From: Liolophura sinensis
Taxonomy: Eukaryota > Mollusca > Polyplacophora > Chitonida > Chitonidae
Length of the DNA stretch: 64,000 nt
Direction: 5' to 3'
Assembly: GCF_032854445.1 (NCBI RefSeq)
Contig: NC_088307.1
Location: forward strand, 8,320,017 to 8,384,016
The notes under the pieces are model-generated. The model saw only the letters and a list, made by a program, of their open reading frames with translations. It was not told the DNA's origin and did not search any database. A program made the translations under genes and the position numbers. Below, piece by piece: positions 38,150 to 61,767 of this stretch. Each line of letters starts with the position of its first letter. The stretch's first letter is position 1.

Positions 38150-38904
38150 TTTGGGATATCAACACTGCATTCATCTTGGACACTTACTGTTATTATTATC
38201 ATGAACACAACTCTAAGTGTTGTGTATACCTTGAGACACCAATGTGACCATATGTATTGGACACCGATCTTGTTGTATCTTAGACACCAATCTCAGCGTT
38301 GTATGTATCTTGGAATACCCCACTGTAAGCACTGGACGGCTCTCAGTCTTGCATGTATCTTGCACCTCTTCGGTGTTGTCTGTATACTGCACACACCTCC
38401 CTCAGGGTGGTATCTTGGAAACTCCTTTCAGCCTTGGACACCCACACACAGTGTTGTATTTATATTGGACACCCCCCCCCCCCCCCCCCCCCCACCTTCA
38501 AAGTGGTATTTTGGACAACCCTCTCGTTGTATGTATCTTGCACACTCTTTTCAGTGTTGTCTGTATCTTGGACACTCGTCTCAGTGTTGTATGTATCTTG
38601 GACACTCGTCTCAGTGTTGTATGTATCTTGGACACTCCTCTCAGTGCTGTATGTATCTTGGACACTCCTCTCAGTGTTGTCTGTCTCTAGGACACTCCTC
38701 TCAATGTTGTCTGTATCTTGGACACTCCTCTCAGTGTTGTATGTATCTTGGACACTCCTCTCAGTGTTGTATGTACCTTGGACACTCCTCTCAGTGTTGT
38801 ATGTATTTTGGACACTCCTCTCAGTGTTGTATGTATTTTGGACACTCCTCTCAGTGTTGTATGTATTTTGGACACTCCTCTCAGTGTTGTATGTACTTTG
38901 GACT
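38150..38904. repeat. 30-bp minisatellite carrying the TRPV stop codon
   Basis: From about 38,540 to 38,904 the unit tcagtgttgtatgtatcttg plus gacactcctc repeats strictly every 30 bp; looser copies extend back to about 38,150. A run of about 25 C lies at 38,470-38,494. On the minus strand each unit reads CAACACTGA, and the unit nearest the gene supplies the last codons and the TGA of the channel. One minus-strand frame through the array stays open for 157 codons, but it is not the channel's frame. Confidence 0.9.
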
Positions 38905-41900
38905 ATTGAGTCTAGCCTCAATGTTCTGATCAACCTTCACAGTTTCCATATCTCTTCTCTTCAAATTGTTTTTGGCTCGAGTATGATCCATCTCTCTCTT
39001 ACTCTTCAGGGTTTCCTTTTCCTTTTCCTGTATGTCAATAAACAAAATTAATCACATTAAATTAATTAGGATACAAATCCATGAATTTATAACACTTTAT
39101 TTGCCCTAATACATTAACTTAAAAAAGTGTATTTTTTAACACCACACACAAGAATTTTTCACTTATATGACATGTAGGTCAGCAATCAGATTTATAGGCA
39201 GAAAAAAACACAGGAGCATCTGGAGTAAACCATCAACCTTTACGAGACATCAACCTTTACAAGGTACGAGACAAACCTCTGAACAAATAAAACTGCGGCA
39301 GAAACAGCAAGAACTGGATCTGAACACTCAATCTTAATCAAAGACCTGATAGTCACAAAAAAATTGTTCTTGGATTGGTGAAATGTCAATCATGTTCACT
39401 TACCGACTGATGCCACCGACTGACCAGCACCCGCTTGTGCGCGTCCTCATTCATTGGTTGAGAGTAGGCCAATTGCTCTTCTCGCCGATGAGCTGTTGTG
39501 ACACTCTGCTCAATCACCAGTACAATGTTTGCCCACTGCAAAAAAAGGAAAAAAACAAAAAATGTGACAAAATCCAATATACAAGAAATGTTCAGTATCA
39601 GGTTGGCTTGGTCTGAACTCCTGTGCGGGATTTGAAGGTAGCCAATTGATGTATAACATTAATTTCAATTTTAGGTAAATGACATCCGTAATACTGGTAA
39701 CTTTTGTATAACTACATCTAGTTCACATCTACTACAAACCCATGGACTCACCTGTCTGAACCACTCTTTCTGTGTGTAGTTCACAAGCTGGTAATGGACG
39801 ACTGTTTCACACCTACTACAAACTCATGGACTCACCTGTCTGAACCACTCTTTCTGTGTGTTGTTCACAAGCTGGTAATGGACAACCAGTTCACACCTAC
39901 TACAAACTCATGGACTCACCTGTCTGAACCACTCTTTCTGTGTGTAGTTCACAAGCTGGTAATGGACGACCAGTTCACACCTACTACAAACCCATGGACT
40001 CACCTGTCTGAACCACTCTTTCTGTGTGTAGTTCACAAGCTGGTAATGGACGACCAGTTCACACCTACTACAAACTCATGGACTCACCTGTCTGAACCAC
40101 TCTTTCTGTGTGTAGTTCACAAGCTGGTAATGGACGACTGTTTCACACCTACTACAAACTCATGGACTCACCTGTCTGAACCACTCTTTCTGTGTGTTGT
40201 TCACAAGCTGGTAATGGACAACCAGTTCACACCTACTACAAACCCATGGACTCACCTGTCTGAACCACTCTTTCTGTGTGTTGTTCACAAGCTGGTAATG
40301 GACGACCGGTTCACACCTACTACAAACCCATGGACTCACCTGTCTGAACCACTCTTTCTGTGTGTTGTAAACAAGCTGGTAATGGACGACCGGTTCACAC
40401 CTACTACAAACCCATGGACTCACCTGTCTGAACCACTCTTTCTGTGTGTTGTTCACAAGCGTGTATGTATTTCCCATCATAGCAATCAGCATGTTGACCA
40501 GAAGCAGAGTCACCATGATCATGTATACTAGGAAAACCACCTAATCAAGACGAAGAAGAACAGTTCATAAACTCAGGCACAAAAAAATTCACACCAGTGG
40601 CGCCTGGGTTTTCTTTCATATATTTTGTAATTTTTATCCGCTTAATATCTTCTAACAATTCTCTGCAAATTAGCAATGAAACTTTCGTAAAATTTGCGCA
40701 TGCATGTGCACTAGTCTCTGCATGCATGTATATGTATAAAAGGAATTCACCTGCAATGAAGCCTTACATTTATGTAAATTCTGCATGTAATTCAGCTAAA
40801 GTTTCGCAGTTTTGAAGTGGCACATTTTGATTGATTTTGATGGATTAATCCACTATAAAAGATTACTTTGAAGTCTGGTCTTAAATTTTTTGCAAAAACC
40901 AAACTAGGTAGCAGGACATCGAAAGTATCATTTTAAGACCTGCAAGTGTAAGTGCTGCGATCTGAAAGTGCATCATTACATACAAGTTTTTGGGCGATAT
41001 ACAGTACATGTAAATGTTAAAGAATACTGGAAACTCAAGTTCCTCGTTGAAATTAATGCTACAGCTCAACAGTGAGAGGTTTTGGCAGGTACCTAAAGGT
41101 GACGCTGATTTCCCACATCTCTGAACCACACTGCATGTGTAAAATTGAAATATTCTATTACATGTATACTAAATATTCGTTCAAATAAATCAAAGTATAA
41201 ACTTATAGATGGGGAATTTAACAGTGGACATGTACCACCAAAAGACATTTATCTTATACAGTATAATTTTTCTTTTTCTTCCATTCTATCCCTAATTATA
41301 AAGACTCACATTCAGAGCATGGAAATGTCGGGATTCATCAAACTCTTCAACAAAGTCTTCAAATTCACCCGTTGCCATGGTGAGCAGAGCCATTATTGTT
41401 TCTAAGCCACTACTAAAGACTGTGCGCTTGGTGACGCCCAGGAAGGCAATGTAGAAGGCTACAAGTGCAGGGATTGCAGGGTACATCAAGTGCCAGGGAA
41501 CCACACGAGAGTGAACATCAACCACACCGATACAACACCAAATACAAAGAGAAGAAAAAACAAGAAAGATATGTGTAAATTAGGTAATATCACCTTGGAG
41601 ACTTGAGTGAAGATTGTTACAGCAATTTAATGAAAGTGGTGTGTAAATTTAATTTACATGTCTTGTTACAGCTTTGTTAAACCTGGGATTAATACAGACA
41701 GAGTCATTCTTAATCCAGGGTTAAATTGTCTAAATCCATATGCACAAAATTCCAAGCAGTGTGCACTTTGGTAATCCCAACAAATAGCGCTAATATCCAT
41801 TAACAACAGTGTTGATTTATCTCCCCTTGGTCAAAGAGGTAATTAATCATACGTAAATGAATATGAAATGAAAATGAATATGTCTATGTACCATAATTCT

Positions 41901-44900
41901 TCCAGAATTGCAGACACTCTAGAAATTCAGACACTCTCGAATATCTCCCCCCCACCCCTCCAAGGCCCAGGTATTTAAACTTCTGAAAACATGGCTGATT
42001 GGATTATAGCTCCCTTACCCAACCTATCACCTGTACAGCTGTGCCTGCAGGGCTAGCCTATGATTGCCCGGAGGGCCAGCCAATTCTCCTCTACTGTCAC
42101 GAGTGTTAACATGGCAGCTAAGTTTCATTTAGATATTAGTGCCAAACTGTTCAACACAAGCTCATTATTTGGAAGGCAATATAAAGTCTACAAAAAATCT
42201 TGGCAAATTTCACCTTTCAGCAACTCTCTACATATGCCAAATTTGTTACATTATTTATGCCACCTATAAATAATGTAAAGTTTTATGGAACAAAACAGTT
42301 TTCCAATAATGGTATACTGCAGATAATTCAAGCATGACCCTCTGATCTATAAGAGAAAAGGAAATGTGCATATTTCACAACATCAGAAAAATAAACAAAT
42401 GTCTATTAAAATACCGGTACATGTAAATTGATCATGTATTGTAAATCTTCAACCTTTTCAACCACTAAAGCACTTTTTCAGTGGAATTGCATACGTTTAT
42501 TATGAAAATCATGCTAAAAATGATTTGCTTGTAACATTAAAGATACAAACTTCACAAAAGTGTGCAAATTATTTCTCTACATTCCATAGTACTTTCAACA
42601 TTTCAAAATATTGGTTGCATAGGTGGCTGAAAAGGTTGAAGAATTAGGATATGCACAACACTGAAAAATAAAGGTGCAATGCTGAAATAAAAAGGTGCAA
42701 TGCTGAAATAAAAAGGTGCAATGCTGAAACAAAAAGGTGCAATGCTGAAAAAAAAACACAGTATAAAGTGTGTCACATAATTCATCTGCAACAGTCAACT
42801 GGCTAATGAAATATGCAAATTATGACAAAAAACTAAAAGTTTAAACAAAACCTCTTTCTCGAATGGTGAATTAAGAAGAAAGTTTCAAAAAAATGGTTAA
42901 TGAAATATGCATGTACTGGTTCAAGGTAGCAATAAAGGCACACACACATGATACATCCACATGTCATTAAGCAGGGGTATGCTCATATTAAAAAGAATTT
43001 GCTCTTAAATTCAATGTAACAGTGACATCATTATACCATACAGCTCAGCTCAATACTGCCAATATCAAATTCACTTTAATATAAAGACAAAATTTGTCTT
43101 ATTTTCTGTAACATTTTGCTGGCCTGGAGAAGAAATATTCTTAATTACACAACCTTTTTACAGTTTGTCCACACAATTTGTCCTTTTATACGTGTGTTTT
43201 ATAGTCAGAAATAACAAGAGGGCATTTCATGAAGAAGCCATTATAGTTACCTTGTCTTCAGTGTACCAAAATTTGTATAATACTGGGACATTTTACTTGC
43301 AACTCTGGAATGTCTGGGTCAATGCACTTTCCAAAAACTTGGAAAAAAACGTTTCACAATTTTTCTTTTATTCCTAGATAATGTCATTTCCACTATGAAA
43401 AACATAAAAGAAACTGAACACACACTGTTAAAGAACAGTTACATCGGACATAAAATGTTGAGAAAAAAATGGAATTACGAAAATTTGTTAAAAAAAAATT
43501 GTATTTGATTTCTTGCCTTTTTTTCAGGAGAAAAAAAATCCTTTTCAGGGACAAATAAATGTCATAAAATATCACTTTTGGTGCTAAAACACCTTTTTGG
43601 GGGTGGGGGGTGGGGGAAGGGGGTAAATAAACTTTTTTCCAGTGCAATATAATCCTCCTTTCCAAACAAACCTCAAAACACATTTCTGAGACTCAGACAA
43701 AATAATCAAATAACTTATGCATGGACACAATTTTTGCTCATTTACCATATCAGAATCATCTTTGGGAATTCTTTCATGATCTGCAGAGTCACTCTCATTA
43801 TGTACCAGTATTATACAGACCTTCGTCATCAATCAACTACACACCCTCAAAATTATTTAGTGCAGAACTACAATGAACAAAACAAGTGAATTTTTAAACA
43901 CAAGTGCAATACTGTTGTGACTCCAGGCAGCCACAAAGACACTGGGGTCCTGGGGTGTAAAATACATGTGCACCAACATTATACATACTCTGCCAAGATC
44001 AGGGTATTTCGTCTCAACAAACGAGTCATAAATGTCTCCAAACTCTCCTAGGGACATGATGTACATGCCCATCATGGATTCTATTGGATGACTGAACACA
44101 CTCCCATCCACTCCCCCAAACACCACGAACATGGCTGGAAAGTTGATCATTGTGGCAACGGTTTGTTATTGTAGGTAAAATCCAAAACCAGAAATATTTA
44201 TTTAGTTATTAATGACTTGACTGTTGTTGACGGCTGTCAGGTTTATGGGCGGAGGACTGCCTGGAGTATTAAAACCACCTGCCTTCACAGATACTGTATT
44301 TGATCTACAAACCATGAACACTAAAAAGCTCAATCACTAAGAAATTATCATTAAACATTATGGGCGTGAGCATGTGATTTGCCATGTGAGAAGGTCAATG
44401 ATGGTGTTCATACATATATGTATATGGAATATCAGTATAAGGTTACCAATGCACATAATGAATATGTAGATATTATTTACCCTGGGAGAATCCAATGACA
44501 AAGATGGCGTAGATGATGAAAAAGCGCAGCAGATCTCCACGAATCATATTGTAAATCATTACTACGAACGGACCCACAATACGGAAGCCTCTACAAATTA
44601 AGGAACAAAGCATCAAACATTACAACAGATGCTGCAACTGAAAAACAACCACTTCCTTTTCACACCTTAGTTTTTTTTTCAATCCTATGTGCTAAATCAG
44701 TTTGCAATGATTCAAGCACTTCAGCATTTTTTTTTTTTAATTTCTTATATGGTCACCTCTTTTATTAACATCCATAAATTTGACAATGGTGAATGTCATA
44801 GATTATAAATATTTTTGAGTATGGCTCAATCACATAACAAATTAATAACCAAATATTTTTAACAGTCATACAAAACATAAATAAAACGAAATTAATTTCC

Positions 44901-47900
44901 GATCTTAGATAAATCAGTACCGAAACTGCTACGCTGGAAATGATATAAAGTATACTTCTATGGACCAATCTGCTGGGTGACTTCTGGTGATGTTTATGGT
45001 TATTGTACCGGAGACTAACATCATTTTACTGATCAATCAATGTATTCATAACAGTGAAATCCCCCGTACCAACATGTAGTTCAAGTAAAATGACTGAGTC
45101 TACAATACTCTTCACAGGTAGGGCAAAAGATAATACACGCAGAAAGTTAACCCTTCAAATTGTGGAAACAAATCATTACATGTACCTGCAGAAGAAGAGG
45201 AAGTACGGGGCTGTAAACAAGATAGCCAGAATTCCCATAATGTCTTCATACTGGTAAGCACAGGCGGCCCGTCCAGGTAACATCAGGATAACAAACACAC
45301 AGGACAGCAGGAACAGGGCCTTTGTCGGGGCTCCTTTCTGAGAAAACAATCAATAGATATCATGACAAACACACAGGACAGCAGGAACATGGTCTTTGTT
45401 GGGGCTCCTTTCTAAGAAAACAATCATGGGATATCATGACAAATGTATGACAGCGGGCACAGGGCCTTCCTCAGAGCTGCTTTCTAAGAAAACAATCAGG
45501 AGATATGACAAACACACAGGACAGCAGGAAAAGAGCCTTTGTCTGAGCTCCTTTCTGAGAAAACAATCAATAGGTATCATGACAAATACACAGGATAGCA
45601 TGAAGAGGGCCTTTGCTGAGGCTCCTTTCCGAGAAAACAATCAGGAGATATCATGACAAATACACAGGATAGCATGAAGAGGGCCTTTGTTGAGGCTCCT
45701 TTCCGAGAAAACAATCAGGAGATATCATGACAAATACACAGGATAGCATGAAGAGGGCCTTTGTTGAGGCTCCTTCTTGAGAAAATAATCAGGAGATATC
45801 AGGACAAAGACATACATCAAAAGTAAATGTATAAGCATGTAGTTACCAGAGTTGTGAAGAATATTTTTGTGCCCTGGTGGTAGATTTCTTTCATAGCCAG
45901 CAGTATGTAGAGACAGGACCCTAGGTACATCATCACCTCCAAGACAAACCGAGCCTGCAAACAGAGTGCAGTTTTATGTGGCTTTGCACAGTAAGAAAAC
46001 CTTGCCAAAACTTAACTGTGATCATTTCGGTCATGAAGTTTCTTTTGAAATTTCATGCCCTGTCCTATAAAATTTAACGATTTGAATCTTGACTGCAAAT
46101 TCCAGACTGTTCACAATTAGTTAAAACCATGAGAGCTCAGCATTCTGGTGTTGCAGACTTGCCTGTCTGAAACCACATTACCATTTATCAGTACAAAAGA
46201 CTAATCCTGCTGTATGAATGCTTCACGATAATCATTCAATCAAATTTATCAGATTTCTCAATCATAATATAAATAAAACACATGTATACATTTATAGTCT
46301 CATTCTGAGTCCAGTCTAAATCAATATGACAAACAACGCAAGTCCAAGCTCTGATAGGTGGGGTGCGGTTGGTTTCAATAAAACATGTTAAGCTGACAAC
46401 TTCCCTTAGTAAAACAAAGACTGAAGAAATCTAAAGTAATTCAGAAGAATTTATATCCGGCCATGCCAGATATCCAAAAACCTAAGGAATGGATCAAGCT
46501 GGGTTTTATCTGTGCAGACACAAATGAATCTGCACACAAAATTTTTTCAGAATTGTAACAGAAATCAACAATTAATGAGAATCCCAGAAATAAATTTCCC
46601 AACCTTCCACAAAGTGACCCCTGGCACATACAAAGTGATCGAACCTGATCGATTTGGGACATGGAGTTGTGTATTAAGGATAATTTTATACATACATAAA
46701 TTTACAAAAATTAGACAATATGAGCAGTTATTGCATGGATACCAAAGAAGGTTTGACATATGGGCTCAAATAAATATATCCCATGCTTTTGCTGAAGCTT
46801 GGAATGAAAAGAAAGACATATAAATATACAACATAAGACAAAGCATGACCAGTGTCACATGAAATACTTTGTGGCATGAAGATTTCACTGGAAAAAAAAT
46901 ATTTTCACCAAAGCAAAGTCAATTAATTTACATACATGATACTCTGATAAAACTGAGAAAGGAGAACAGTTCAGTTTATTCCAGCATTCATAGATTGCCT
47001 TTGTTTACCACATCATCCTTAGCTGCCACCCAACCATCCTCCCACAACGACAGCACTTTTCAATGGCTGCACCCACTGAACCATTCATTAATCTAACTCT
47101 GCTTTCTTTGTATTACTGGAACTGATGTGCACACATACATACCAGCCACTTGTGCTACGGTCAATGACCTCAAATTTCACTCTGGACTATGTTGTACATT
47201 TTGCCTGATTATAAGGAGGTCTTGTGGTCTCAGAAAGATGTTTTAATGTTTGTTTGGATGATAGGATGGTATCCTTCCAGAAAAATGTAATTTTCACACC
47301 AAAAGTAACGTGACATTTATCTAGACTTCTAATAAGGCACTTTTATGGATGAAATTATACATCATTTACAATCCTTTCTACAAATCATGCCAAAAAATGT
47401 CAACAAACCTCAAATATGCAACTCCTCAGTATCTATGTATTTCCATTAATTATGGCATAAAGATTATTAGTGGATCAACAACAAAATTAAACATAAATGT
47501 CTTGTTCAGTTCAAACAATTCTTACGATGTCCTCTGTCCTGTAGGGTTTCATCAGGTAGCAAGGATTAATGGTGGTTTCCTTGACCAGGGTGACATTGCC
47601 GTCATCTGTTACATTTTTCTCTGTAAGGGTTGGATTTAAGTCTGTGCCAGGTCTCAGCAGAAATGCCCCAATCACGATCAAAAAGTAGAACACAAACACA
47701 ACAAGTCTCCGGTAGAATCTGAAAAATAAACGAAAGTCATGAGGATGAACAGCTCATTCATTACAATGAAAGACTGTTTATACCAACACACATGTACATA
47801 GATTGTCAAAGTTTAAATATTACCTGTTACTGTCCTGTTCAGCTGACTGAACTATCCAACACAAGGGCTCGCCCGGCCTATTTTCACTTTTCTTTATGGA

Positions 47901-50900
47901 CTAATTTACTGAAGGTAAAATCAAGGTAAACAAACAAAAACAACTAATTGGTAAATTGATGAATTAACAGGTACACATGCTGGCTTATAATATATAACTG
48001 AGCCAGAATGTCTGCCATTTTTCCATCTCAACGACTTTTTATGACTTTCTGTGACCTTCTGGCATGAATTAACATTTGTCACATTATTCAATTTAAAATG
48101 CACAAAATCAAAAAACAAAAACTGTGAATTTTCATTACTTTTCTTCACCAGAGAGAACGAAATAACTTTTATGAGTTAAGTGTATAACCCGTGCATGTAG
48201 TGGAATAGCCTGCTGAGGGTTATGGACCCAAATGTTGATGGTTCAAACCCCCAACACTCTGCACTCACATGGCGTCATAGCCAGTGGTTACCTGAATCTG
48301 ATAAATGTCCGCCACTTCTCCTTTAACAGGTACACTACAAGTCCATCCATCATCTCCAGGTGACTTTCCTTCTCCTAAAACATCCATTTGAATTCAGAGA
48401 ATCTATTTCATTGTTGTGTTATGCCATTCTCAAGAATTTTTAACTTACACAAGGGTTTTTAGCTTTATGGGTGGAGGAAACCTGAGTGTGTGGTCCTCAG
48501 GTCACGAAACAATCTTAGACTTACGTCAAATTTGAAATAGTTAATTCTGATGTAGCCATGTTAAACATTGCTTGACAACTTTAATTCTGGGTGAGTTATT
48601 GTACAACAAATTTCAGCTAGAACAACAGCAAGGATTATGCCAAATTGAATGATTAAAAGTTTGACTTATGTTTAAGAACGCTTCATGATCCCTGGGGCTG
48701 GAGTAAACCACCAAGCTGTGCATGTTACTGACAAACTTCTCCATGTGTGACCTACAGATATTAAAACTGACTACTATGCACTGGTGGCAGACAAGTGGTC
48801 TTCAATGTTGTTGAATGTTGCCCCGTGAACAGTGAGAATGAGGTGAATGTATAAACCCAACAATAACCAGGTTTGAGCCGGCCTTAATGACTACACCATG
48901 CTCTCCTCCTCAGAGAAGGTAAATCTCAGATTTAATATGCAAAACATACACAGATACACCTGGTTTTGAAACCTGATCTGGGGAGCCTCCGTTGCTCAGT
49001 TGGCGCGGTCATTGTGAGTTCAAGTCCAGCACATGCTGACTTCCTCACAGGCCGTAAGTGGGGAGGTCTGCCAGCAAACTACAGATGGTCATGGGTTTCC
49101 CCCGGGCTCTGCCCGGTTTCCTCCCACCTTCATACTGGCCACTGTCGTATAAGTGAAATATTCTTGAGTACGGCATAAAACACCAAGCAAAGAAATAAAT
49201 ACATAAAACAAACCTGATCTCGGGAACACAAAAAATGAACCTGCACACAAAATTGTATCCAAATCAGGCAATACATGAAGCCGTAGCTACACGAAAACCA
49301 AGAAGCAGCCAATATCAAGGAAACATGTAAAACTCATGCAACACAGTTGCTACAGGAACAATAAGCAACCGATACAAAGCAAACAAAGGGGCATGTATAT
49401 GCTAGTTAGTTATACTGCATGTATTTATGCTTGGGTTTTTACACCATATTTAACAATTTTTCAGTCATATGACAACGAGGAGTCATATTAGGTGTGTGTA
49501 CATACATGTACATGTATACCATGTTTTTGTGTGGCAGGGAGAATCCATGCTGTGTTAGTCCTGCCGCCACTGAAGTATCATGCCGAAGACACCAGACATG
49601 ACACCCCACCCAATCACATCATACTGACACTGGGCCAACCAGTCCTGTTTCCTCGCTCTAACCTCTCAGTGGTGAATGCCAAGTGAGGCAGCAGCAAGTA
49701 CCATTTTTACAGTCTTTGGTATCACCCGACACAGGTTTGATCCCAGGTCCCGTGACTTCGAGGCATAAGTAATACTGAAGTGAAGCTGAATGTTGTTTGG
49801 TGAAAGTCGGACTGAGCAGAGGAAAAAAAGATGGTCAGAGGTTGAAAGCTAAGAATATAAATGGAAGGCAAAGATGTGGATACAAGTTGCCGGATTTTGC
49901 CACTGAGCTGCTCACCCCATAAACAATGAGATGAAGGGCTGAGTACTTGTTTATCTCCCCTGTCACAGAGATGGTGTCTATGTGCTCCAGAGGGTAGCCC
50001 GCACATGTCACATTCCCGTAGATCCAGTAATCCTCCCGCTCAATTTCCAAGATATACTCGTACATCTGTCAATAAATTCAAAATCTGCATTTAAAATGGG
50101 TAGATGTAACTCCGTCAGATTATTTGCTGATCACTGAAGCCTTAAATAAACATACAACAACAGCAAGTTTAAGTTTTCATGTAAATGTACATACCATTTA
50201 AAATAAACTCATCTTTATCAATATCAAACAGGTCATTGTTATTAATGTCCCAGCAAAATTAACACGCTTGAACTTTAACAATTTTATGTGCATGTTTAAA
50301 TGTTACAGCTTGAAATATCACAAATGACAAGAAGTTTGTGACGATGTTGACAGCAAGTTTGACTGGCAATTGTATATTATTACTGTGTAACAACAACTCA
50401 GTGATGACATAGATATAACAAAAACCTACCGTCTTCCTGGCCAGCTTTGCTGCCAGTGTGAGCGGAGTGAGATTCTGTCTGTTGCTTATATTCAACTTTG
50501 CTCCCAGTCCATGCATCAAAGAAAACATGTCCTGGAAACAGTATTCATCATATAAACCCTGTAATATTTAACATTTTAACTACATGTAACTAAATGTTAT
50601 CTCACTGTTATACACTCAATGTTATTGAATCTCTACACATGTATATGTACCCCTTCCCATACTATATGCATGGTACATTGAACTGTGTGAAACGTGTTTT
50701 CATGGCAAAATTAATCTGTCATATCCAGTGAGTTATTGTTAACTGTTATAATGGATTATCATTATGACATGGGGGCATCTGTGGCTGACATGATTGGCAT
50801 GTGAGCGTGGCACAATGACCCAGGAGTATCTCACAAATGTGGTCGCTGTGAGTTCAAGTCCAGCTCATGCTGGCTTCCTCTCCGGCCATATATGAGCAGG

Positions 50901-53900
50901 TCTGTCAGCATCCTGCAAATGGTTGTGGTTCCCCGAGCTCTGCCCAATTTCCTCCCACCATAATAGTGGCTACCATTGTGCAAGTGAAATATCCTTGAGT
51001 ACAGCGTAAAACAGCAATCAAATAAATAAATAAATGTCTTTTGCAGGCCTTTGGGGAAGAACAATTTCATTGTAAACTGATCGCGCAATCTTCATTAAAT
51101 GAAAATATTATTTTTATTTTTATTACCAAACAACAGACTCATGTAACACATTACCCCTTAATAAGATAGGACAAGCCAGCTTGGGTTTTATTTCGGCCTT
51201 TATTTATTAACTATACGAAAAAGATATTATATTATTTTTTGTCAATATATGAATAAACGCAATGTATTGTGAAATAAACAAATAATGCAACCTTTTTGTC
51301 ATAGATAACCAACATATGCAGAACTGTGTTCCCATTGGAATCTTGAAAGTTGAGGTCTGCCCCTTTAGCCACCAATAACCTCACACATTCCTCCTGTTCC
51401 AGGCAGGCAGCAAAGCTTAAAGGGCTTTCTCCCCAGTATGTGTACCTGGCCAAGGGAAAACAAAGAAACAAACTCATAAAAAAGTTTGAAAAAGTCAGAT
51501 ATACAAGTACATGGAGGTAAATGCAACCACTTATTTTACCATGCAAAAATCTTAAGCTTACACTTCTTTATCCTTGCTATATTTCGGCCTTAAAAATGCA
51601 TATACGTATAGATTTATGAATACATTCACTGAATGAACCTTGAAGTGAGCTATTTCAAGCAAAGGATTACGAATGTAATGTCACTGATACCCTCCGGTTC
51701 ACTACAGGCCAACGTAGAATCTGATGTTTTAAAACCATTTTACTTGGTTGGGAAAATTCTAAAAAAGTAAACCACAATATTTTCTTGGACAGCGTTTAAT
51801 GGTCTTTGACCTGATATATTCTTCATTTTAGTGTTTTCTTTGTTGTTAAACACTTATACTTACCCCTCATAGTTGGTTTTCTTGCTGACATTAAACCACT
51901 CCTGGTCCGCCACCCCAGTGCGTGAATTCTTCTGGTCATTGGGACAGAAGAACTGACCACAGCACCTCTGGTGGACGTCCGCACCATTATCAAGCAGAAA
52001 CTTGACCAGCGCTGGGTCCTCATTCACTATGGCAAGATGTAGCACGGACTCTCCTGGAGAAAATGCACAATTTTGAATTGCAGAGTAGTGGTCTCACACA
52101 GTGCCATTAATTTACAAACACATGTACATGTAGTGCTTACTAAGCAGAACCACCAAATAGGCCTGCCCTGAATTACCTCCCTTGTTACACAAGGCAGAAA
52201 TGTCAAGAGATCTTGAATGAAGACCGTCTATTTCAGCTTAAGAGTTTGCCGAAGCTATCTATTGTATTTAATTAGGGCCAGGGTTTTAAAATTACCTGCA
52301 AATGGGTTAAAAAATACAGAATGTTCATCATGGGCTTTCCAAATAAGTATACAAAGTTAAGTCTTTAATGCTAGTAACTCACCATTCATCATTTTTTGAG
52401 GTCCCACCTAACCACAGATATCACTGATCAGTTTTGGGATATTCCTCAGCCATCATGCCTTACCAAAGTAGATATCCCCGATGCTGATATCACTGATCAG
52501 TTTTTGATATCCTTCCCTTTAGTAAACACTTTTTTTTTTGCACAAGAACATTTGTAATTTTGTAGTCCGGCACTATTTTGTTTGACGTAAAATATCTGAA
52601 TCAAAAGAGTATCATGCTTTATTATTTTAATGAGATTTCACTGAATAACATGTAGAACAAAATGACAATACTGCGGCTGGTGTGAATCATAGCAGCCATC
52701 TTGAGAATTTATCCAATCAAACACGTTACTATCAGACATTTCAGATTGCATGGCCTATGCTGTGACATGGCCTTTTCCCATTCACTCCATGAATCAGTTG
52801 TTTTACAAGCCGTGTAATATTCAACGATGCCAAATTATGTCAGACACTAGCATACCATCTGGGCTTAAACCGCATTCATCTCTCAACAGACCCCTACAGG
52901 TATAATTAGTCACTCTGTTCAAACTACATTTTTTTCATTTATTTTAGTGTTTAGACAACAGTTCTGAATAACAAAATTTATTATGTAAGCCAAAAATTTA
53001 TTGATATGACAAGACAGCATCTAACCGGATAATACTGAAAATTAACTAAATCTTATGATAAATAAATTAAATCTTAATGATATATTTTTTTCTCTGAATT
53101 TATTACAAATGAAGAATTTAAATTTTGCTCCTTCGTCTGTCTCACATACAAGGGATGTTTCTTCCCTTTTCTTCAAAGTCAAACAATTAACAATGATTTA
53201 TTTCAGAATTGAGCATGAATCTAGTTGTACAACAACAGTTTGAAAATGTTTAACTGGGGTCAAAATCACCAGCATAACCCCTCCTGAGGCTACGACCTGA
53301 ATCAGAAATGCCTTGGCCATGCATTTGCAGGTAGGCTATTGAAACAGGATTGCTGGAGTTCCTTGTACATAATATGGTAAGCCTGCTGTGTCAACAGTTC
53401 AAGCATTGGAAGAAATATCCTTTCAGTATGTCCAATTTCCGAGAAAGCTATTTATCACTTCGTGACCGAAGTCCACAGCTTTTATCTGCCATAAGCTACT
53501 ACTTAGACTATTACACGGAGAACACCTTAGACGTTAAAGAGCGATAGTAAATGTGACATCACCTTTCTCTCGATAATGGAGACGTGCTGACGCTGTGTCA
53601 AGATGAAGTTTAACTAAACTTTTACTGTGCTGAAAAAAATCTAAAAAAAACATTTAATGCCGGGTTCACTTTAAGATTTACCAAAGTACATGAACATGTC
53701 CCCCGATTTAGATATCACTGATCAGTTTGGGATATCCCTCCCTTAAGACTCACCAAAGTACATGTCCCCAATGTAGATATCATTGATCAGCTTGGGGTAA
53801 TGGTGCAGCAGCCTCTTAGCCAGGTCGGCATGTATAGTAGAGGAATTCAGGAAACAGAGATGTAGGATTGTCTCCCCTACAGTACCTCTTTTGTCTATAC

Positions 53901-56900
53901 GCCAACATGTCTCCTTTACCTTCAGATCTGAAAAATACAATCACCCATAAAATGAACTACTTATATAAATCTTATGCCACGTACATGTATGTCACATATG
54001 CATACGAATCTAAAGAAATATATTTATCGTGAAATGAAATTAAATATATGCAAGATAAAATGACATCAAATACATGAATATGTGGAATGAAATCAAATAA
54101 AATACAAGTAACATAAAATGAAATGAAATACACATACAGAATGCAATCAAATTAAATACAAGCAGTATGAAATACATCATGTATCATTAAATCAGATGAA
54201 ATACATACTGCATGAAATTCAAATACAAGTAGAAGAATGAAATACATTTAACATGCAATCAAATGAAATATCTAATGCAGCAGAAGTAGTATCCCTAGGC
54301 TTCCCACTTCAATTTCGGGGGTGGGTGCGTGTGGGGGTGGGGTGTGCAAAACCAACAGCCCCCACAGTTCAGCTGCTTATGTACATGTAACATGCATTCA
54401 AATGAAATACATCAGGAGCGAAGGAATGTCATGAAATTTGGTGGGGGGGGGGGGGGGCTAATGCAGCAGAAATTTCAGGGGTTGGGTTTGTGAGGGGGGG
54501 GGGGGGAATCTTAAAAACCTATTTGTTCAATACATGTTACATGAGTTTGAATGCACCGCTCACGGTTTTGGCCAAGGCTTCAAGTTACAACACTCAGGTT
54601 TGTCATGTGCCTGACAAAGTTCAGTGGTTTTATACTCTGAGCACTCCTCTTTCCTATATATATCATGTAAAGTGAAAATTCTTCAACACAGCCTACTTAT
54701 TTTTATTTATTTGATTTGTGTTTTACACCATAATCAAGAACATTTCACTTTTGCAATGGCGGCCAGCATTATGATGGGAGGAAACCAGGCTGAGCACAGG
54801 GGAAACCCATGACCATCCACAGGTTGCTGACAGACCTTCCCACACATACAGCAAAAGGGGTAGCCGGCATGAGCTGGACTTGAACTCACAACGACCGCAT
54901 TGGTGAAAGGATCCTGGGGCACTGAGACGCGCTGGCATGCTAACCCAGTCAGGCACGATGAGTACAAAAAAACTTCATGGGTACTTTAATATTAGCAGTA
55001 ACTAAATTTTACACCATATAGTTAAGATTTACCAGCAGTTGATGGGTTTGACTCTTTCAGACTGTACTTTCTTTCCTTGTACCTCTTCCCATACACAGAC
55101 TTGTTTGCTGTAGCACAGCTATAATCAACCATATCCCGATAATTCAGAATTTCTACGAGTGGCAGATCATACCCCTTGCCTTGGTGATACATCATTGATC
55201 TGATATCCCGAATTTTGGCGTCGAGCTTCGAAAAGTCGCCTGTTTGCTTAGCCAGCCTACACAGTTCCACCAGTTCTCCACCATCATTCAAATCCACCAG
55301 TTTGTAAACAGGGTTATAACTGTGGTCACCCTGCTTTCGGACATCCCGTGTTATATCCTCGGACTCCTTTGACCAGCATGAATGCCCCATCGCTCAGGCT
55401 TGGAGGACTCTATATAATGACGTCATAAAGTCATCACCTACATGTATAGTATAAACACTGCCACCGGTTACCACAATCACAAGCCTAGTTAGGGACACAC
55501 TTTACAATATCATGAAACTATTCATCTCAGACGTGGCACCAAACTACATGTAAACCGCAGAGAATTGGTTACACACACTTCAGACATGCTTAGAGATCAC
55601 TCACATATCCAGGTAACCTGTCCAGCATCCCTGCTCCAAAACCTTTGGGTCTTGCACCTTTGAGTGTCCTCAGGTACAAGTATACAGGTAGCACATTATA
55701 AGGTATTGTAACACCTTAGCCTCGCTTCAGGGAATAGTTCCTTGTATATGTATAGACTGTGTGATAATTCACATACAGATATACCTGTACACAGCGCAAG
55801 GTTTCGTCATGCATCACAACAAAAATCTACACAAACCCCTGGTAATATATTGTTGTAATGAGGCGACCTGAAACCCACAATTTGTCAACAGCAAACTGAA
55901 ACCTGATTCAACCCTCTCAAGGATCAATCACTGTGACAGTGTCAGCCCACAAATCATAATTTTGAACACATGCAAATGTAGGTGTAATGTTATTTCAGTT
56001 TACAATCACATGCCATCCCTAAAGCAAATCATTTCTGACTAAATTTTTTTTCTCAAAAGAAGAAATCATTAAAATAATCTTTTTTGTATCATTACATGTA
56101 CACGTAAATGTGGGTCTCAAAAAAAAAATATGAAACAAAGTTCTTTTCTGTGAGCATCAAATATAGGTCAGGCACCTGTACTTGTACATGTATGTAATGC
56201 TGGGGGTCCTTCACTGGGCTTCTCTAAGTGTTGTCCTGTCTCTTACACAGTCTGGTGACCTACATACACCCCTGCTCATCACATACAATGATATGCACGT
56301 CAGTACTTGTCTGTCTTATCAAGCACATACTCTACTAGTACTTGCCTCCTTTTAAGACGTACGTGTACATGTACAGTATAATGACACTAATTGTCATTAC
56401 AGCCTATCACAGAATTACAATCCCTGCAGCCAACTGGACCAGACCACAACATGAGTGAGTGAGTGAGTGAGTGCTTGGGGTTTAACATCGTACTTAACAA
56501 TTTTTCAGTCATATGTTGCAGGACCACAACATGAAGACTTGAAACTTTGGCACTTTATGTATATGTATGCTTGTTGTTTAACGACGTTCTTAATTAGTAC
56601 TTAAACAAGTACATGTGACAACATGTATGAAATAATGCATAGTTTACATGTACACAGGTTTTGCTGTCCTAATTAAATAACTTATAGGTTGTACAAGTGT
56701 GTATTTTAATTGCAGTGCTTTATATAGACATATTTTATATAAACTGTTCCAATATGATTCTACATATTTATTTATTTATTTGATAGGCATTTTGCGCCAT
56801 ACTCAAGAACATTTCACTTCTGCGATGGCAGCCAGCATTATACAGAAATGACCGGGAAAAGCCCATGGGAAAAAAACACACCATCCACAGGTAGCTGCAG

Positions 56901-59900: not shown

Positions 59901-61767
59901 ATCTTTATTTTCACTTTACATGTACATGTGAACACATGTGAGTTGTAGGCCTATATATATATATGTACCCTAAATCTTGCAACCTATTAAATGTATTACA
60001 TATTTTGAGAATATTCCTTTTCTTGTCAATGTACAAATTATAAAAACACATCGAAGACAGTAAAAATCGATACCGAAGATTTTTGGCACTGTTAAAAAAA
60101 TCTATTAGCGCTAATTCAATTTGCTTTTTGCTGTTACTTTAGAAAAGCCCAAATAATTACCTTTCATGCAAATGTTACGTTCAAAATCAGCAATAAAGTT
60201 TGAAAAATTTATGGAGCAAGTCCCATTATAACTTTAGAATCATTTTAACAATTTCAATATTACAGGTATGCGTCTGGCATTTACAGCTTGAAACTCGGTT
60301 TAACACAAGCGAATAATACAAGGCCTACAGTGTACATCTGATGTTGTTACATCAAACTCGCAAGTGCATGACTGTTGTAAAATGATACGCTAACCATGCC
60401 GCCACCATGCATGGACTGTCGGCGGACCGTGTGCGGACCCTACGTAGATGGTAGGGCGGAAGATGACGGCGTGTTTGATCAGGGTCAGGCCAGGGTCAAC
60501 AGCTATTTCGAAATCACAGAAAAAAAACAAAATTTATGCAAGCAATGTACATGTAAATACAAGTTTGCGAGGGAGGGGCACAGGTGGCTTCTTTAGAGAG
60601 ATTAGAGTTGATTGTCAACCTGACTACTAAGAGTTGAACAATTCTTTGATTAGCGCCAGAGTCAGAATTGTAATATATACATGGAGTGTACATGTATATG
60701 CTAAAAATCTCTTCTGATTATTGTAAGACACATGTAGACATTAATAACTGTAATGTATACCTCTACACTTAGATAAACATGTGCCTATAAAAAACATACA
60801 CTGTATCCTTCCTACATAAAATATAGCTTCATAAAAACATTGTTTGTTTCTTGCCTTTATCTGTCATCCAAATTATTTGATGTAGCTATTAATTATACTA
60901 TTTCTAAATGAAAAGGAAAACTTGTATAGTAGTAGATGAAGTGAAAACAGGCATGTTTTAAGAGCACAACAGATCAAGTGCAGTTTTGTACATTCTGATG
61001 ATGCAGTCACATGTATTTGCAAAAGTGGCAGGGAGTTGTAAAGACATAGGTGATGCCTTTGTTAATTGCTGACCCACTTCTCAGAAGTTCATCATGAAAA
61101 GGAAACCCTTCAATGAACTTACATCACTCTTCCACGTTACAGCAACCTAGTCTTTACAACAACCACGAAACATATTTCTTATTCACTATATGATGGTGTT
61201 CTTTCCAAATTTCGCGAAAAACCCAAAAACAAAAAATTTGAAAAGGTATGGATGCCCAATTATTCATTAGGCTTGGCTGGTGATCAGAAACAACTTATTT
61301 AACAAGTAATTTATATGAGATTCTTGGATTTTAAGCATTGGTCTTGCCTCATAGTCATACAAAGTCATTACAGTAGCAGCTTACATACAGGTGATATTAC
61401 CTTTCTTTCTGTACAGATAGTTAAAATCCCCATTGGTGAGCGTGTCAATCTTTGGCAAAGGGTCTGCTTTGCCTTTGACTTTTAATCCAAATGGCTCTTT
61501 TCTGTAGTCTTTGTTGTCTCGAATATTCAAGATGTCAATGAGTGGAACTTTTTTACCTCCACCTCCATTGTAAAGCAGGGATTTGAAGCCATTGCTCAAG
61601 ATAATCTCATCAAGCTCAGAGAAATCTTTCTTTCGTCTTCCTAGTTTGGTCAGTTCGACAAACAAGCCACCTCCATTAAGATCCACTAATTTGTACACAT
61701 CATTTACAGCGTCATTGCCTTGCTGCTTCACATCGTTCGTGACATTCCCAGATTCTGTATTTCCCAT
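38881..61767 (-). CDS. nan: TRPV cation channel, Nanchung/OCR type
   Basis: Common exons, minus strand: 2, 53927-53754; 3, 52053-51864; 4, 51445-51292; 5, 50531-50430; 6, 50065-49916; 7, 48374-48292; 8, 47718-47526; 9, 45954-45847; 10, 45337-45186; 11, 44590-44481; 13, 40540-40424; 14, 39535-39404; 15, 39027-38881. First exon: 61767-61401 or 55390-55033. Pore exon: 44134-43989 or 41458-41310. Every join is in phase, giving 771-777 aa. Exons 2-6 hold the ankyrin domain ([40 protein letters not shown]). Helix S1 is in exon 8, S2 in 9, S3-S4 in 10-11, S5 in 11, and S6 ([15 protein letters not shown]) in 13. The TRP helix follows ([15 protein letters not shown]). The YSQPM motif and the N-terminal [11 protein letters not shown] fit Nanchung/OCR better than Inactive/OSM-9. 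Known members are mechanosensory or chemosensory channels of sensory cilia. The gene looks complete. Confidence 0.93.
39131..39235 (-). mobile_element. Degenerate SINE family A copy
   Basis: acaagaatttttcacttata and later gcaga/ggagcatctggagt-like blocks echo the family. It lies in the TRPV intron between exons 14 and 15. Confidence 0.35.
39744..40459. repeat. 84-bp minisatellite that copies the TRPV exon 13 donor, 9 copies
   Basis: The motif cacctgtctgaaccactctt occurs at exactly 84-bp steps: 39749, 39833, 39917, 40001, 40085, 40169, 40253, 40337, 40421. Each unit holds the last 36 nt of exon 13 (residues [12 protein letters not shown]), its GTGAGT donor and 48 nt of intron. Because 84 is 28 codons, the donors at 40340, 40256 and 40172 stay in frame with the true exon; beyond that a TGA appears in the unit. 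Confidence 0.95.
41310..41458 (-). CDS. nan: TRPV pore exon, version b
   Basis: It encodes [19 protein letters not shown] then [20 protein letters not shown] (149 nt). Its entry and exit phases equal those of version a. Sixteen of about 49 residues are identical between the two. The filter region reads ATGEFED, so charge and bulk around the pore differ from version a. The acceptor is TTGTAG and the donor GTGAGT. Confidence 0.85.
41678..41724. other. Inverted repeat
   Basis: ttaaacctgggattaa at 41,678 faces ttaatccagggttaa ending at 41,724, a 15-bp hairpin with a short loop. It lies in the TRPV intron upstream, in gene sense, of pore exon b. Its role is unknown; it may be a remnant of a small element. 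Confidence 0.6.
42661..42755. repeat. 21-bp tandem repeat, 4 copies
   Basis: The unit ggtgcaatgctgaaataaaa occurs at 42,673, 42,694, 42,715 and 42,736, in the TRPV intron between the two pore exons. Confidence 0.85.
43989..44134 (-). CDS. nan: TRPV pore exon, version a
   Basis: It encodes the end of S5, the pore helix and the filter: [19 protein letters not shown] then [19 protein letters not shown]. It needs one base from exon 11 and ends on a codon boundary (146 nt). The filter region reads SLGEFGD, in the place of the GMGD filter of mammalian TRPV1. The donor is GTATGT. Confidence 0.85.
45290..45800. repeat. ~74-bp minisatellite that copies the TRPV exon 10 acceptor, 7 copies
   Basis: The block gctcctttctgagaaaacaa recurs near 45330, 45404, 45476, 45547, 45621, 45695 and 45769. 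Each unit holds the polypyrimidine stretch and AG acceptor (TTTTCTCAG on the minus strand) plus about 45 nt of the 5' part of exon 10. Only the copy at 45,337 is joined to the rest of the exon; the six others are decoys in intron 9. Spacing varies from 71 to 74 bp, so read-through between copies would not keep the frame. Confidence 0.9.
48412..48490 (-). mobile_element. SINE family A, degraded
   Basis: gttatgccattctcaagaat and atgggtggaggaaacctgag resemble the family tail-side half. It lies in the TRPV intron between exons 6 and 7. Confidence 0.4.
48980..49208 (+). mobile_element. SINE family A with A and B boxes
   Basis: The head carries an A box, ttgctcagttgg (48,992-49,003), and a B box, gagttcaagtcc (49,016-49,027), showing tRNA origin. 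The two boxes are closer than usual, so part of the head is deleted. The body (gtttcccccgggctctgccc, gtcgtataagtgaaatattc) and ATAAAT tail are well kept. Confidence 0.88.
49428..49765 (-). mobile_element. SINE family B, near full length
   Basis: Reading the plus strand, it has tgcttgggtttttacaccat, aacaatttttcagtcatatg, a middle with ccactgaagtatcatgccga and ccaaccagtcctgtttcctc, and a reversed B-box area (aggtttgatcccaggt). The tRNA head is at the high-coordinate end, so the element is on the minus strand. It lies in the TRPV intron between exons 6 and 7. Confidence 0.65.
50771..51034 (+). mobile_element. SINE family A, full length
   Basis: The order is head ggcatctgtggctgacatga, B box gtgagttcaagtcc near 50,850, body ctctgcccaatttcctccca and tail caatcaaataaataaataaa. 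About 264 bp, the family's apparent full length. It lies in the TRPV intron between exons 4 and 5. Confidence 0.88.
52380..52520. repeat. Two stray copies of the TRPV exon 2 donor end
   Basis: Two units about 68 bp apart share gatatcactgatcagtttt. One also has ccaaagta next to a GTAAGG donor on the minus strand, like the true exon 2 end at 53,754. They lie in intron 2, about 1.3 kb from the exon. Confidence 0.75.
53690..53800. repeat. Tandem duplicate of the TRPV exon 2 donor end
   Basis: The last part of exon 2 (gatatcattgatcagcttgg, caaagtacatgtcccc) is repeated 65 bp away as gatatcactgatcagtttgg and ccaaagtacatg. The copy ends at a GTAAAT donor-like site. The inner, more conserved copy at 53,754 keeps the protein frame. 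Confidence 0.85.
54030..54300. repeat. Degenerate AT-rich tandem repeat
   Basis: Variants of gaaatcaaatgaaataca recur with irregular spacing, in the TRPV intron before exon 2. Confidence 0.6.
54312..54508. repeat. Cluster of long G tracts
   Basis: Several runs of G, three of them 8-16 bases, with TG-rich linkers and a short direct repeat (taatgcagcagaa, also near 54,275). On the transcribed strand of TRPV these are C tracts; the plus strand could form a quadruplex. Confidence 0.7.
54698..54960 (-). mobile_element. SINE family A, full length
   Basis: It has tail tttatttatttgatttgtgt, body ggcggccagcattatgatgg, aaacccatgaccatccacag, reversed B box gagctggacttgaactcaca, and a tRNA-like end ggcatgctaacccagtcagg. 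It sits about 70 bp from the donor of exon 1b, inside the TRPV gene. Confidence 0.9.
55033..55390 (-). CDS. nan: TRPV alternative first exon 1b
   Basis: It encodes [16 protein letters not shown]... with [20 protein letters not shown], 119 codons plus one base, ending at a GTAAAT donor in the same phase as exon 1a. It starts with its own ATG, about 1.1 kb before exon 2, and is clearly homologous to 1a ([10 protein letters not shown]-, DFS-LD--I, ---LYN/HQGKG). An internal promoter upstream of 55,390 is inferred. Confidence 0.82.
55391..56451. promoter_or_regulatory. Presumed promoter region of TRPV exon 1b
   Basis: No coding sequence is visible. The 5' end of exon 1b must lie here if that exon is a transcription start. 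No core element is obvious; short palindromic tacatgtacatgta-type motifs recur, as elsewhere in the window. Confidence 0.3.
56452..56520 (+). mobile_element. SINE family B end fragment
   Basis: A GTGA microsatellite leads into gagtgcttggggtttaacat and aacaatttttcagtcatatg. A second shorter echo lies at 56,569-56,593. Confidence 0.7.
56764..56905 (-). mobile_element. SINE family A, partly degraded
   Basis: tttatttatttgataggcat, gcgccatactcaagaacatt and gcgatggcagccagcattat are followed by a loose match up to about 57,025. Confidence 0.7.
57215..57980. repeat. Degenerate ~20-bp minisatellite (agaattgccac)
   Basis: The motif agaattgccacagggcta, with variants, recurs about 30 times with loose spacing of 18-22 bp. 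It lies in the long TRPV intron between exons 1a and 1b. No coding signal was seen. Confidence 0.8.
58280..58425. repeat. 32-bp tandem repeat, about 5 copies
   Basis: agaggaaagtagcgcctcct-type units recur with a strict 32-bp step (landmark agtagcg at 58,289, 58,321, 58,353, 58,385, 58,417). Confidence 0.9.
58426..61400. other. TRPV intron, no gene seen
   Basis: Mostly AT-rich intron between exons 1a and 1b. A more GC-rich patch at 60,390-60,600 has a short plus-strand frame with several Cys but no recognisable domain. Another patch near 59,390-59,660 is likewise unexplained. Confidence 0.45.
61401..61767 (-). CDS. nan: TRPV alternative first exon 1a
   Basis: It encodes [16 protein letters not shown]... 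with [20 protein letters not shown], 122 codons plus one base, ending at a GTAATA donor. The left-over G joins AT of exon 2 to make Asp. MGNTES with the [11 protein letters not shown] block resembles the N-terminus of insect Nanchung as I remember it. The exon faces the divergent promoter shared with the CIMIP2 gene. Confidence 0.85.

What the first reader, a model, noticed from the sequence alone, without database searches (positions are those of the whole stretch)
41310..44134. Two mutually exclusive pore exons in a Nanchung/OCR-type TRPV channel
Two homologous exons, at 44,134-43,989 and 41,458-41,310, each encode the end of S5, the pore helix and the selectivity filter. Both need one base from exon 11 and both end on a codon boundary, so exactly one must be used: skipping both or keeping both breaks the frame. 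The filters differ (SLGEFGD versus ATGEFED), so splicing could swap the ion selectivity of the channel. About one third of residues are shared, so the duplication is old and both copies have been kept open. I do not know of a described TRPV gene with exchangeable filter exons.
Basis: partly seen in the sequence, partly recalled or inferred. Interest (0 to 1): 0.88.

Follow-up and report, generated by a model that had tools for sequence, protein, structure and literature searches.

The report
Swappable pore exons in mollusc TRPV
A mollusc gene for a Nanchung-type sensory ion channel carries two alternative copies of the exon that builds the ion-selecting pore, only one of which can be used per message, and oysters, mussels and snails have a like pair, so splicing probably changes which ions the channel passes.

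Summary
A 15-exon TRPV gene (minus strand, 55,390-38,881; best solved relative Drosophila Nanchung) has two homologous pore exons, 12a (44,134-43,989) and 12b (41,458-41,310). Either alone gives an intact 771/772-residue channel; both or neither gives early stops. A profile built only from other molluscs finds these two peptides in the six-frame window (E 2.7e-24 and 2e-11; next 0.49). The pair is not peculiar to this genome: in five bivalve species annotated isoforms have no substitution outside this stretch but 29-35 within it, and 76 of 77 listed mollusc proteins carry exactly one pore type. The types differ at one filter position: Gly/Ala in 20 of 20 a-type, Glu/Asp in 22 of 22 b-type; 12a has Gly, 12b Glu. 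Two short contigs with uninterrupted b-type frames indicate transcription in molluscs. Best reading: a conserved mutually exclusive exon pair, probably at least as old as the bivalve-gastropod split, that adds an acidic ring at the filter. Changed selectivity is inferred. Filter exons are exchanged in NALCN; my searches found none described for TRPV. No transcript of this species was available, and 12b is diverged.

The parts
61401..61767 (-). Exon 1': probable alternative first coding exon (367 nt, phase-1 donor GTAATA, same phase as exon 1)
   Evidence: sequence and phase; 46% to the first exon of Lingula P0076 and 41% to P0047, against 39% and 32% for exon 1
55033..55390 (-). Exon 1 (first coding exon used in the model)
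53754..53927 (-). Exon 2
51864..52053 (-). Exon 3 (ankyrin region)
51292..51445 (-). Exon 4 (ankyrin region)
50430..50531 (-). Exon 5 (ankyrin region)
49916..50065 (-). Exon 6
48292..48374 (-). Exon 7
47526..47718 (-). Exon 8 (S1 region, by inspection)
45847..45954 (-). Exon 9
45186..45337 (-). Exon 10
44481..44590 (-). Exon 11 (S4-S5 linker and most of S5); gives one base to exon 12
43989..44134 (-). Exon 12a: end of S5, pore helix, filter SLGEFGD; a-type, like the pores of outgroups
41310..41458 (-). Exon 12b: end of S5, pore helix, filter ATGEFED; b-type by its acidic residue at the switch position
40424..40540 (-). Exon 13 (S6 and start of the C-terminal region)
39404..39535 (-). Exon 14
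38881..39027 (-). Exon 15, ends with the stop codon
44135..44215 (-). Acceptor of 12a with a 79-nt AG-free stretch upstream (second longest of 15 acceptors)
41459..41593 (-). Acceptor of 12b with a 133-nt AG-free stretch upstream (longest of 15 acceptors)

Best explanation
[quoted passage not shown] Exon 12a is the ancestral pore; 12b is an old tandem copy. Each transcript uses one: including both or neither shifts the frame and gives a premature stop (inferred to be removed by nonsense-mediated decay). The two proteins share ankyrin repeats, S1-S4, S6 and tail, and differ only in the end of S5, the turret, the pore helix and the filter. The b-exon places an acidic side chain where the a-exon has Gly or Ala, so a tetramer gains up to four carboxylates at the outer end of the filter. 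Most likely consequence (inferred): splicing sets divalent selectivity, block or proton sensitivity of one sensory channel by cell type. Shown: the gene anatomy, the frame logic, both pore types in relatives as isoforms with one pore per protein, and spliced-looking contigs with b-type pores in other molluscs. Inferred: use of 12b in this species, the decay step, the change in permeation.
For: 12a alone or 12b alone open, both/neither stopped. Non-chance homology. In Ostrea edulis, Mytilus galloprovincialis, M. trossulus, Crassostrea virginica and Dreissena, annotated isoform pairs have 0 substitutions outside a stretch of about 75 columns from GFSQ and 29-35 within it (the last two also differ by gaps elsewhere); the differing part starts right after GFSQ[AS] and ends just before the S6 part, the borders seen here. 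76 of 77 hand-labelled mollusc rows carry exactly one pore type. Switch residue G/A in 20 of 20 a, E/D in 22 of 22 b, not acidic in the 15 of 16 outgroups that the pattern could read, G in 12a, E in 12b (sets picked by eye). Exon tree: 12b inside the mollusc b clade 98/94, 12a with a-types and outgroups. Two 'lgn' contigs of 2978 and 2766 nt hold 772- and 781-aa b-type proteins, hence spliced RNA or a retrocopy. 12a and 12b have the two longest AG-exclusion zones of 15 acceptors (79 and 133 nt; rest 17-69), a mark of distant branch points at regulated exons (recalled).
Against: No transcript of this species was available, and no genome-wide search was answered. 12b is a long branch (1.64) and its highest pairwise identity is to an a-type pore (Solemya, 45%); its profile scores for b (50.6) and a (43.8) are close. 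With the switch residue masked (and two long outgroup rows dropped) the clade of b plus 12b falls to 78/41, so the age of the b type is also less sure. A 12a+12b sister pair is not rejected (p-AU 0.088). The tree nests 12b among bivalve b-exons, yet 12b lacks the cysteine pair that the 12 bivalve b-exons show. A search with the 12b exon alone gave 4 candidates and no hit at E 10. One mollusc model (Biomphalaria P0075) holds both pores in one protein. In Potamilus the two pores lie on gene models with consecutive tags that differ by 74 substitutions elsewhere, so there it does not look like splicing. The isoforms are database annotation, whose read support I could not see. No current was measured.
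Confidence: 0.88

Rival explanations
1. 12b arose by a separate, later duplication of 12a in this lineage and resembles the b-exons of other molluscs by convergence on an acidic filter residue.
For: 12b is diverged, a/b profile scores are close, masked tree support is only 78/41, the 12a+12b sister tree is not rejected (p-AU 0.088) and the nearest single sequence is an a-type at 45%; 12b lacks the bivalve b cysteine pair; M. edulis has a further a-like third exon, so extra duplications do occur (P0067).
Against: Unmasked tree puts 12b in the b clade at 98/94, not with 12a; exon order a then b matches the concatenated Biomphalaria model; the b-profile ranks 12b just above 12a in the window. Gastropod b-exons mostly lack the cysteine pair as well.
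Confidence: 0.25
2. 12b is a relic: an unused or decaying copy, and only 12a is spliced.
For: No transcript from this species; long branch; no close homologue of the exon alone.
Against: Open frame, donor GTGAGT and an AG acceptor, right phase at both ends, intact pore helix and filter, 133-nt AG-exclusion zone, and b-type pores annotated in many molluscs.
Confidence: 0.08
3. The exchange is real but mainly alters gating, assembly with Inactive-type partners or turret binding, not ion selectivity.
For: The exon also swaps the turret; the 12 bivalve b-exons aligned add a cysteine pair there, and Nanchung and Inactive are chains of the same solved entries, e.g. 9nvn.
Against: In the five-residue filter core only the acidic switch separates the two types fully.
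Confidence: 0.35

Closest known systems
NALCN exon 15a/15b (and 31a/31b) alternative selectivity filters, Senatore et al. 2013 (PMC3557258; passages read)
   Same: Tandem mutually exclusive exons spanning a pore loop, ancestral copy upstream, one filter residue differs, old and conserved in invertebrates including molluscs; isoforms confirmed by cDNA in Lymnaea.
   Different: Four-domain channel, so one of four filter residues changes (E to K); here a TRPV subunit, so all subunits of a homotetramer change, and the switch is neutral to acidic.
Cav3 exon 12a/12b, reviewed in Stephens et al. 2015 (PMC4436565; passages read)
   Same: Alternative S5-to-pore exons found in most protostomes, differing in turret length and cysteines, shifting sodium/calcium preference.
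   Different: Those exons end before the filter; here the filter itself is included.
TRPM3 splice variants (Oberwinkler et al. 2005; only its title in a reference list seen)
   Same: The title says that alternative splicing switches divalent selectivity of a TRP channel.
   Different: As recalled, a short change by alternative splice site, not exchange of whole homologous exons; another TRP family.
Drosophila Nanchung (PDB 9nvn) and mollusc 'TRPV5-like' proteins
   Same: Closest solved relative, 744 bits against 393 for Inactive; listed full-length mollusc proteins are about 51-66% identical to the 12a isoform.
   Different: Among the listed arthropod rows I saw one pore type only; the mollusc isoforms are annotated but I found no paper that remarks on them.

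Membership tests
TRPV channel, Nanchung/OCR group | N-terminal ankyrin repeats and C-terminal six-helix ion-transport domain | tested here: met
   Ank_2, Ank, Ank_3, Ank_4, Ank_5 and Ion_trans above Pfam cut-offs in both isoforms
TRPV channel, Nanchung/OCR group | closer to Nanchung than to Inactive or vertebrate TRPVs | tested here: met
   PDB search: Nanchung 744 bits, Inactive 393, TRPV6 217
Mutually exclusive exon pair | neighbouring homologous exons with the same phase at both ends | tested here: met
Mutually exclusive exon pair | either one gives an open frame; both or neither does not | tested here: met
   stops at codons 659 and 639
Mutually exclusive exon pair | transcripts of this species use exactly one | not testable with these tools
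   no RNA of this species; in related molluscs 76 of 77 listed proteins hold one pore type
Mutually exclusive exon pair | a mechanism enforcing exclusion (steric spacing, paired intron RNA) | tested here: inconclusive
   12a and 12b lie 2530 nt apart, too far for steric exclusion; pairing among intron 11, the last 500 nt before 12b and the intron before 13 is no better than 60 shuffles (z -0.76, 0.44, 1.34; the rest of the 2530-nt intron was not tested); frame loss with decay could enforce it
NALCN-like alternative selectivity filter | charge change at a filter residue between the exons | tested here: met
   G in 12a, E in 12b; G/A in 20 of 20 a, E/D in 22 of 22 b (sets picked by eye, placement of the residue by sequence and weak models)
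NALCN-like alternative selectivity filter | measured change in ion selectivity | not testable with these tools
   needs electrophysiology

The most novel reading that the evidence does not exclude
For roughly as long as bivalves and gastropods have been separate, molluscs have used splicing to insert or remove a ring of acidic residues at the filter mouth of a Nanchung-type TRPV, so that one sensory channel gene yields a weakly selective and a calcium-preferring (or differently blocked and acid-sensed) channel; some mussels added a third exon (Mytilus edulis) and freshwater mussels split the two pores onto neighbouring genes.
Probability: 0.4. Interest if true: 0.85.

Novelty: new variant of a known kind. 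Interest (0 to 1): 0.74.

Why it matters
Selectivity of TRPV channels is usually taken as fixed per gene. A conserved filter switch in a TRPV of the fly hearing-channel type gives a natural, whole-exon experiment on what sets calcium selectivity in this family, and another invertebrate case beside NALCN of filter exchange by splicing. It would also mean that mollusc TRPV physiology (oyster, mussel, abalone) cannot be read from one cDNA, and that counts from protein lists may mistake isoforms for paralogues.

Tried and rejected
Chance homology: rejected. Two separate genes in this window: rejected, since one set of exons 2-11 and 13-15 serves both and the profiles find no other pore-like peptide in the 64 kb. 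A third pore exon here, as in M. edulis: none found. RNA pairing between flanking introns as the exclusion device: no signal over shuffles, tested on parts. Homologues of the 12b exon alone: none. The first profile-scoring script returned nothing because of an option clash and was rerun. A first a/b sorting by pairwise score to the window's own exons misplaced many b-type rows; trees and the filter residue replaced it. The a and b sets were picked by eye with the filter in view, so the 20/20 and 22/22 split is partly circular; the masked tree is the control and is weaker. Trees used 17 of the 22 b rows and 15 of the 20 a rows plus the third Mytilus exon; Seison and Helobdella were in the tree and were dropped. 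AlphaFold models of oyster isoforms gave mean pLDDT 63.6 (b) and 76.9 (a): both show S5, pore helix, loop, second helix, S6, with the switch residue at the start of the second helix; the b model is too weak to build on, so no fold search was run. Mapping the switch to a TRPV1 residue depends on where a one-residue gap is placed, so I do not claim it. Species: by whole-protein score the top hit is the brachiopod Lingula (1118 bits, a model with a repeated N-terminal part; next Haliotis 1050), but the tree puts Lingula outside the molluscs and the window beside bivalves with SH-aLRT 80 only. On rereading I raised the rival 'separate duplication' from 0.20 to 0.25 because of the missing cysteine pair and the 45% match to an a-type pore.
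Full report
What was checked. The minus strand from 55,390 to 38,881 encodes a complete TRPV channel in 15 coding exons with GT-AG introns. Exon 12 exists in two versions. 12a (44,134-43,989, 146 nt) and 12b (41,458-41,310, 149 nt) both need one base of exon 11 and both end on a codon boundary. With 12a the protein has 771 residues, with 12b 772. With both, translation stops at codon 659 inside 12b; with neither, at codon 639 in exon 14.

What the gene is. Both isoforms carry ankyrin repeats and an ion-transport domain above Pfam cut-offs. The best solved relative is Drosophila Nanchung (744 bits), then Inactive (393), TRPV6 (217). Pore pieces alone also find Nanchung first. A quick tree without exon 1 and the pore exon places the window among molluscs (94), beside bivalves with weak support (SH-aLRT 80). 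The top whole-protein score is Lingula (1118 bits, a model with a repeated N-terminal part), then Haliotis (1050).

Not chance. HMMs of pores from other species, with no window sequence in them, were run on 2319 six-frame peptides of the window. The 12a and 12b peptides stand out with every profile: a-profile E 2.7e-24 and 2e-11, b-profile 2.2e-13 and 1.2e-13. The best other hit has E 0.49, and the reversed window gives nothing better than 2.6.

The pair is conserved. A protein search with the pore region of the 12b isoform (403 hits, 120 listed) returned 77 rows that I labelled by hand as mollusc (42 species or records). 76 of 77 hold exactly one pore of type a or b; one Biomphalaria model holds a followed by b. 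Ten of 42 show both types among the listed rows, including that Biomphalaria model and two freshwater mussels with separate gene models; 19 show only a, 13 only b. I compared ten pairs that differ in the pore and one control pair. In five species, Ostrea edulis, Mytilus galloprovincialis, M. trossulus, Crassostrea virginica and Dreissena, the isoforms have no substitution outside the pore stretch and 29-35 within it; the first three are also free of gaps there (730 of 730, 754 of 754, 747 of 747 columns), the last two are not (730 of 748, 721 of 732). M. edulis X2 and X5 likewise (0 outside, 20 within), giving a third, a-like exon. The other four pairs differ elsewhere too: M. edulis X2/X7 5, Pomacea 7, Mya 13 (a truncated model), Potamilus 74. 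The Potamilus models have consecutive locus tags, so there the two pores appear to be split over neighbouring genes. The stretch starts after GFSQ[AS] and ends just before the S6 part, as in the window. Read support of the annotated isoforms was not visible to me.

Transcription. Two contigs of 2978 and 2766 nt from the source labelled lgn hold 772- and 781-residue b-type channels (P0014, P0028). The same coding length spans about 16.5 kb here, so these are spliced RNAs or, less likely, retrocopies. They are from other species.

What differs. In the filter core G-x-F-x-D the fourth residue is G/A in 20 of 20 a-type, E/D in 22 of 22 b-type, and not acidic in the 15 of 16 outgroup pores that the pattern could read; 12a has G, 12b has E. 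I chose the sets with the filter in view, so this split is partly circular. The pore-exon tree gives a b clade including 12b at 98/94, while 12a sits with a-types and outgroups. With the switch residue masked, b plus 12b still fall together but at 78/41 (Seison and Helobdella dropped). Profile scores of 12b are 50.6 for b, 43.8 for a, its best pairwise match is the a-type pore of Solemya (45%), and a 12a+12b sister pair is not rejected (p-AU 0.088). It also lacks the cysteine pair of the bivalve b-exons among which the tree nests it, though most gastropod b-exons lack it too. So common origin of 12b with other b-exons is favoured, not settled. 12a as the ancestral form is well supported (85.4 against 50.1 bits).

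Splicing control. Of 15 acceptors, 12b and 12a have the longest AG-free stretches upstream (133 and 79 nt; the rest 17-69). Being the top two by chance is 1 in 105. Such zones mark distant branch points and are frequent at regulated exons (recalled). The 2530 nt between 12a and 12b exclude steric exclusion, and intron pairing, tested on intron 11, the last 500 nt before 12b and the intron before 13, shows no signal. Frame loss with decay of wrong products is the simplest way to enforce exclusion (inference).

How it likely works. A cell picks 12a or 12b; the rest of the channel is shared. The b pore adds an acidic side chain per subunit next to the filter. AlphaFold models of oyster isoforms put this residue at the start of the helix after the filter loop (a-type mean pLDDT 76.9, b-type 63.6), i.e. 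at the outer mouth; the b model is weak. I expect altered divalent selectivity or block; altered gating or partner choice is the main rival, since the turret changes too.

Relation to known systems. NALCN has tandem mutually exclusive filter exons in invertebrates (PMC3557258, passages); Cav3 has alternative S5-turret exons that stop short of the filter (PMC4436565, passages). Two insect TRP genes have mutually exclusive N-terminal exons (PMC7143563, PMC6137742, passages). A study of TRPV evolution in metazoans has no word beginning with 'splic' in its main text (PMC9664204, passages); a TRPM evolution study has no 'mutually exclusive' (PMC13143021, passages). My searches for TRPV with exclusive exons or mollusc pore variants (listings) showed no description. 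The library holds open-licence papers only and matches exact words; a search worded for the NALCN case returned nothing.

Noticed in passing
window 1-14442: Tandem array of a 793-bp unit (16 full copies at 95-98% to a reference copy, plus partial and more diverged ends). The unit examined holds four microRNA-precursor-like hairpins (-28.8 to -33.1 kcal/mol) sharing the 3' arm TAGCACTAT; 69 exact TAGCACTAT on the + strand of the window, none on the other. No Rfam match.
   Followed up: partly
window 61767-61401 and 55390-55033: Two homologous first coding exons (46% over 96 columns) with the same phase-1 donor; the upstream one is closer to the first exons of other molluscs and Lingula, so the gene may have two alternative starts as well.
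   Followed up: partly
window 45291-45812, 39720-40460, 38526-38903: Minisatellites seeded on exon edges: 74-bp unit holding the acceptor and start of exon 10 (7.1 copies), 84-bp unit holding the end and donor of exon 13 (8.8 copies), 30-bp array that begins at the stop codon of exon 15 (12.6 copies).
   Followed up: partly
window 52509-52456: Short copy of the 3' end of exon 2 (67% over 18 residues) in intron 2.
   Followed up: no
proteins P0121, P0123, P0124, P0125 (Mya, Mizuhopecten, two oysters) and P0127: Listed isoforms that end just after an a-type pore exon, without S6; P0127 ends as if reading through the exon 11 donor. Truncated or immature forms.
   Followed up: no
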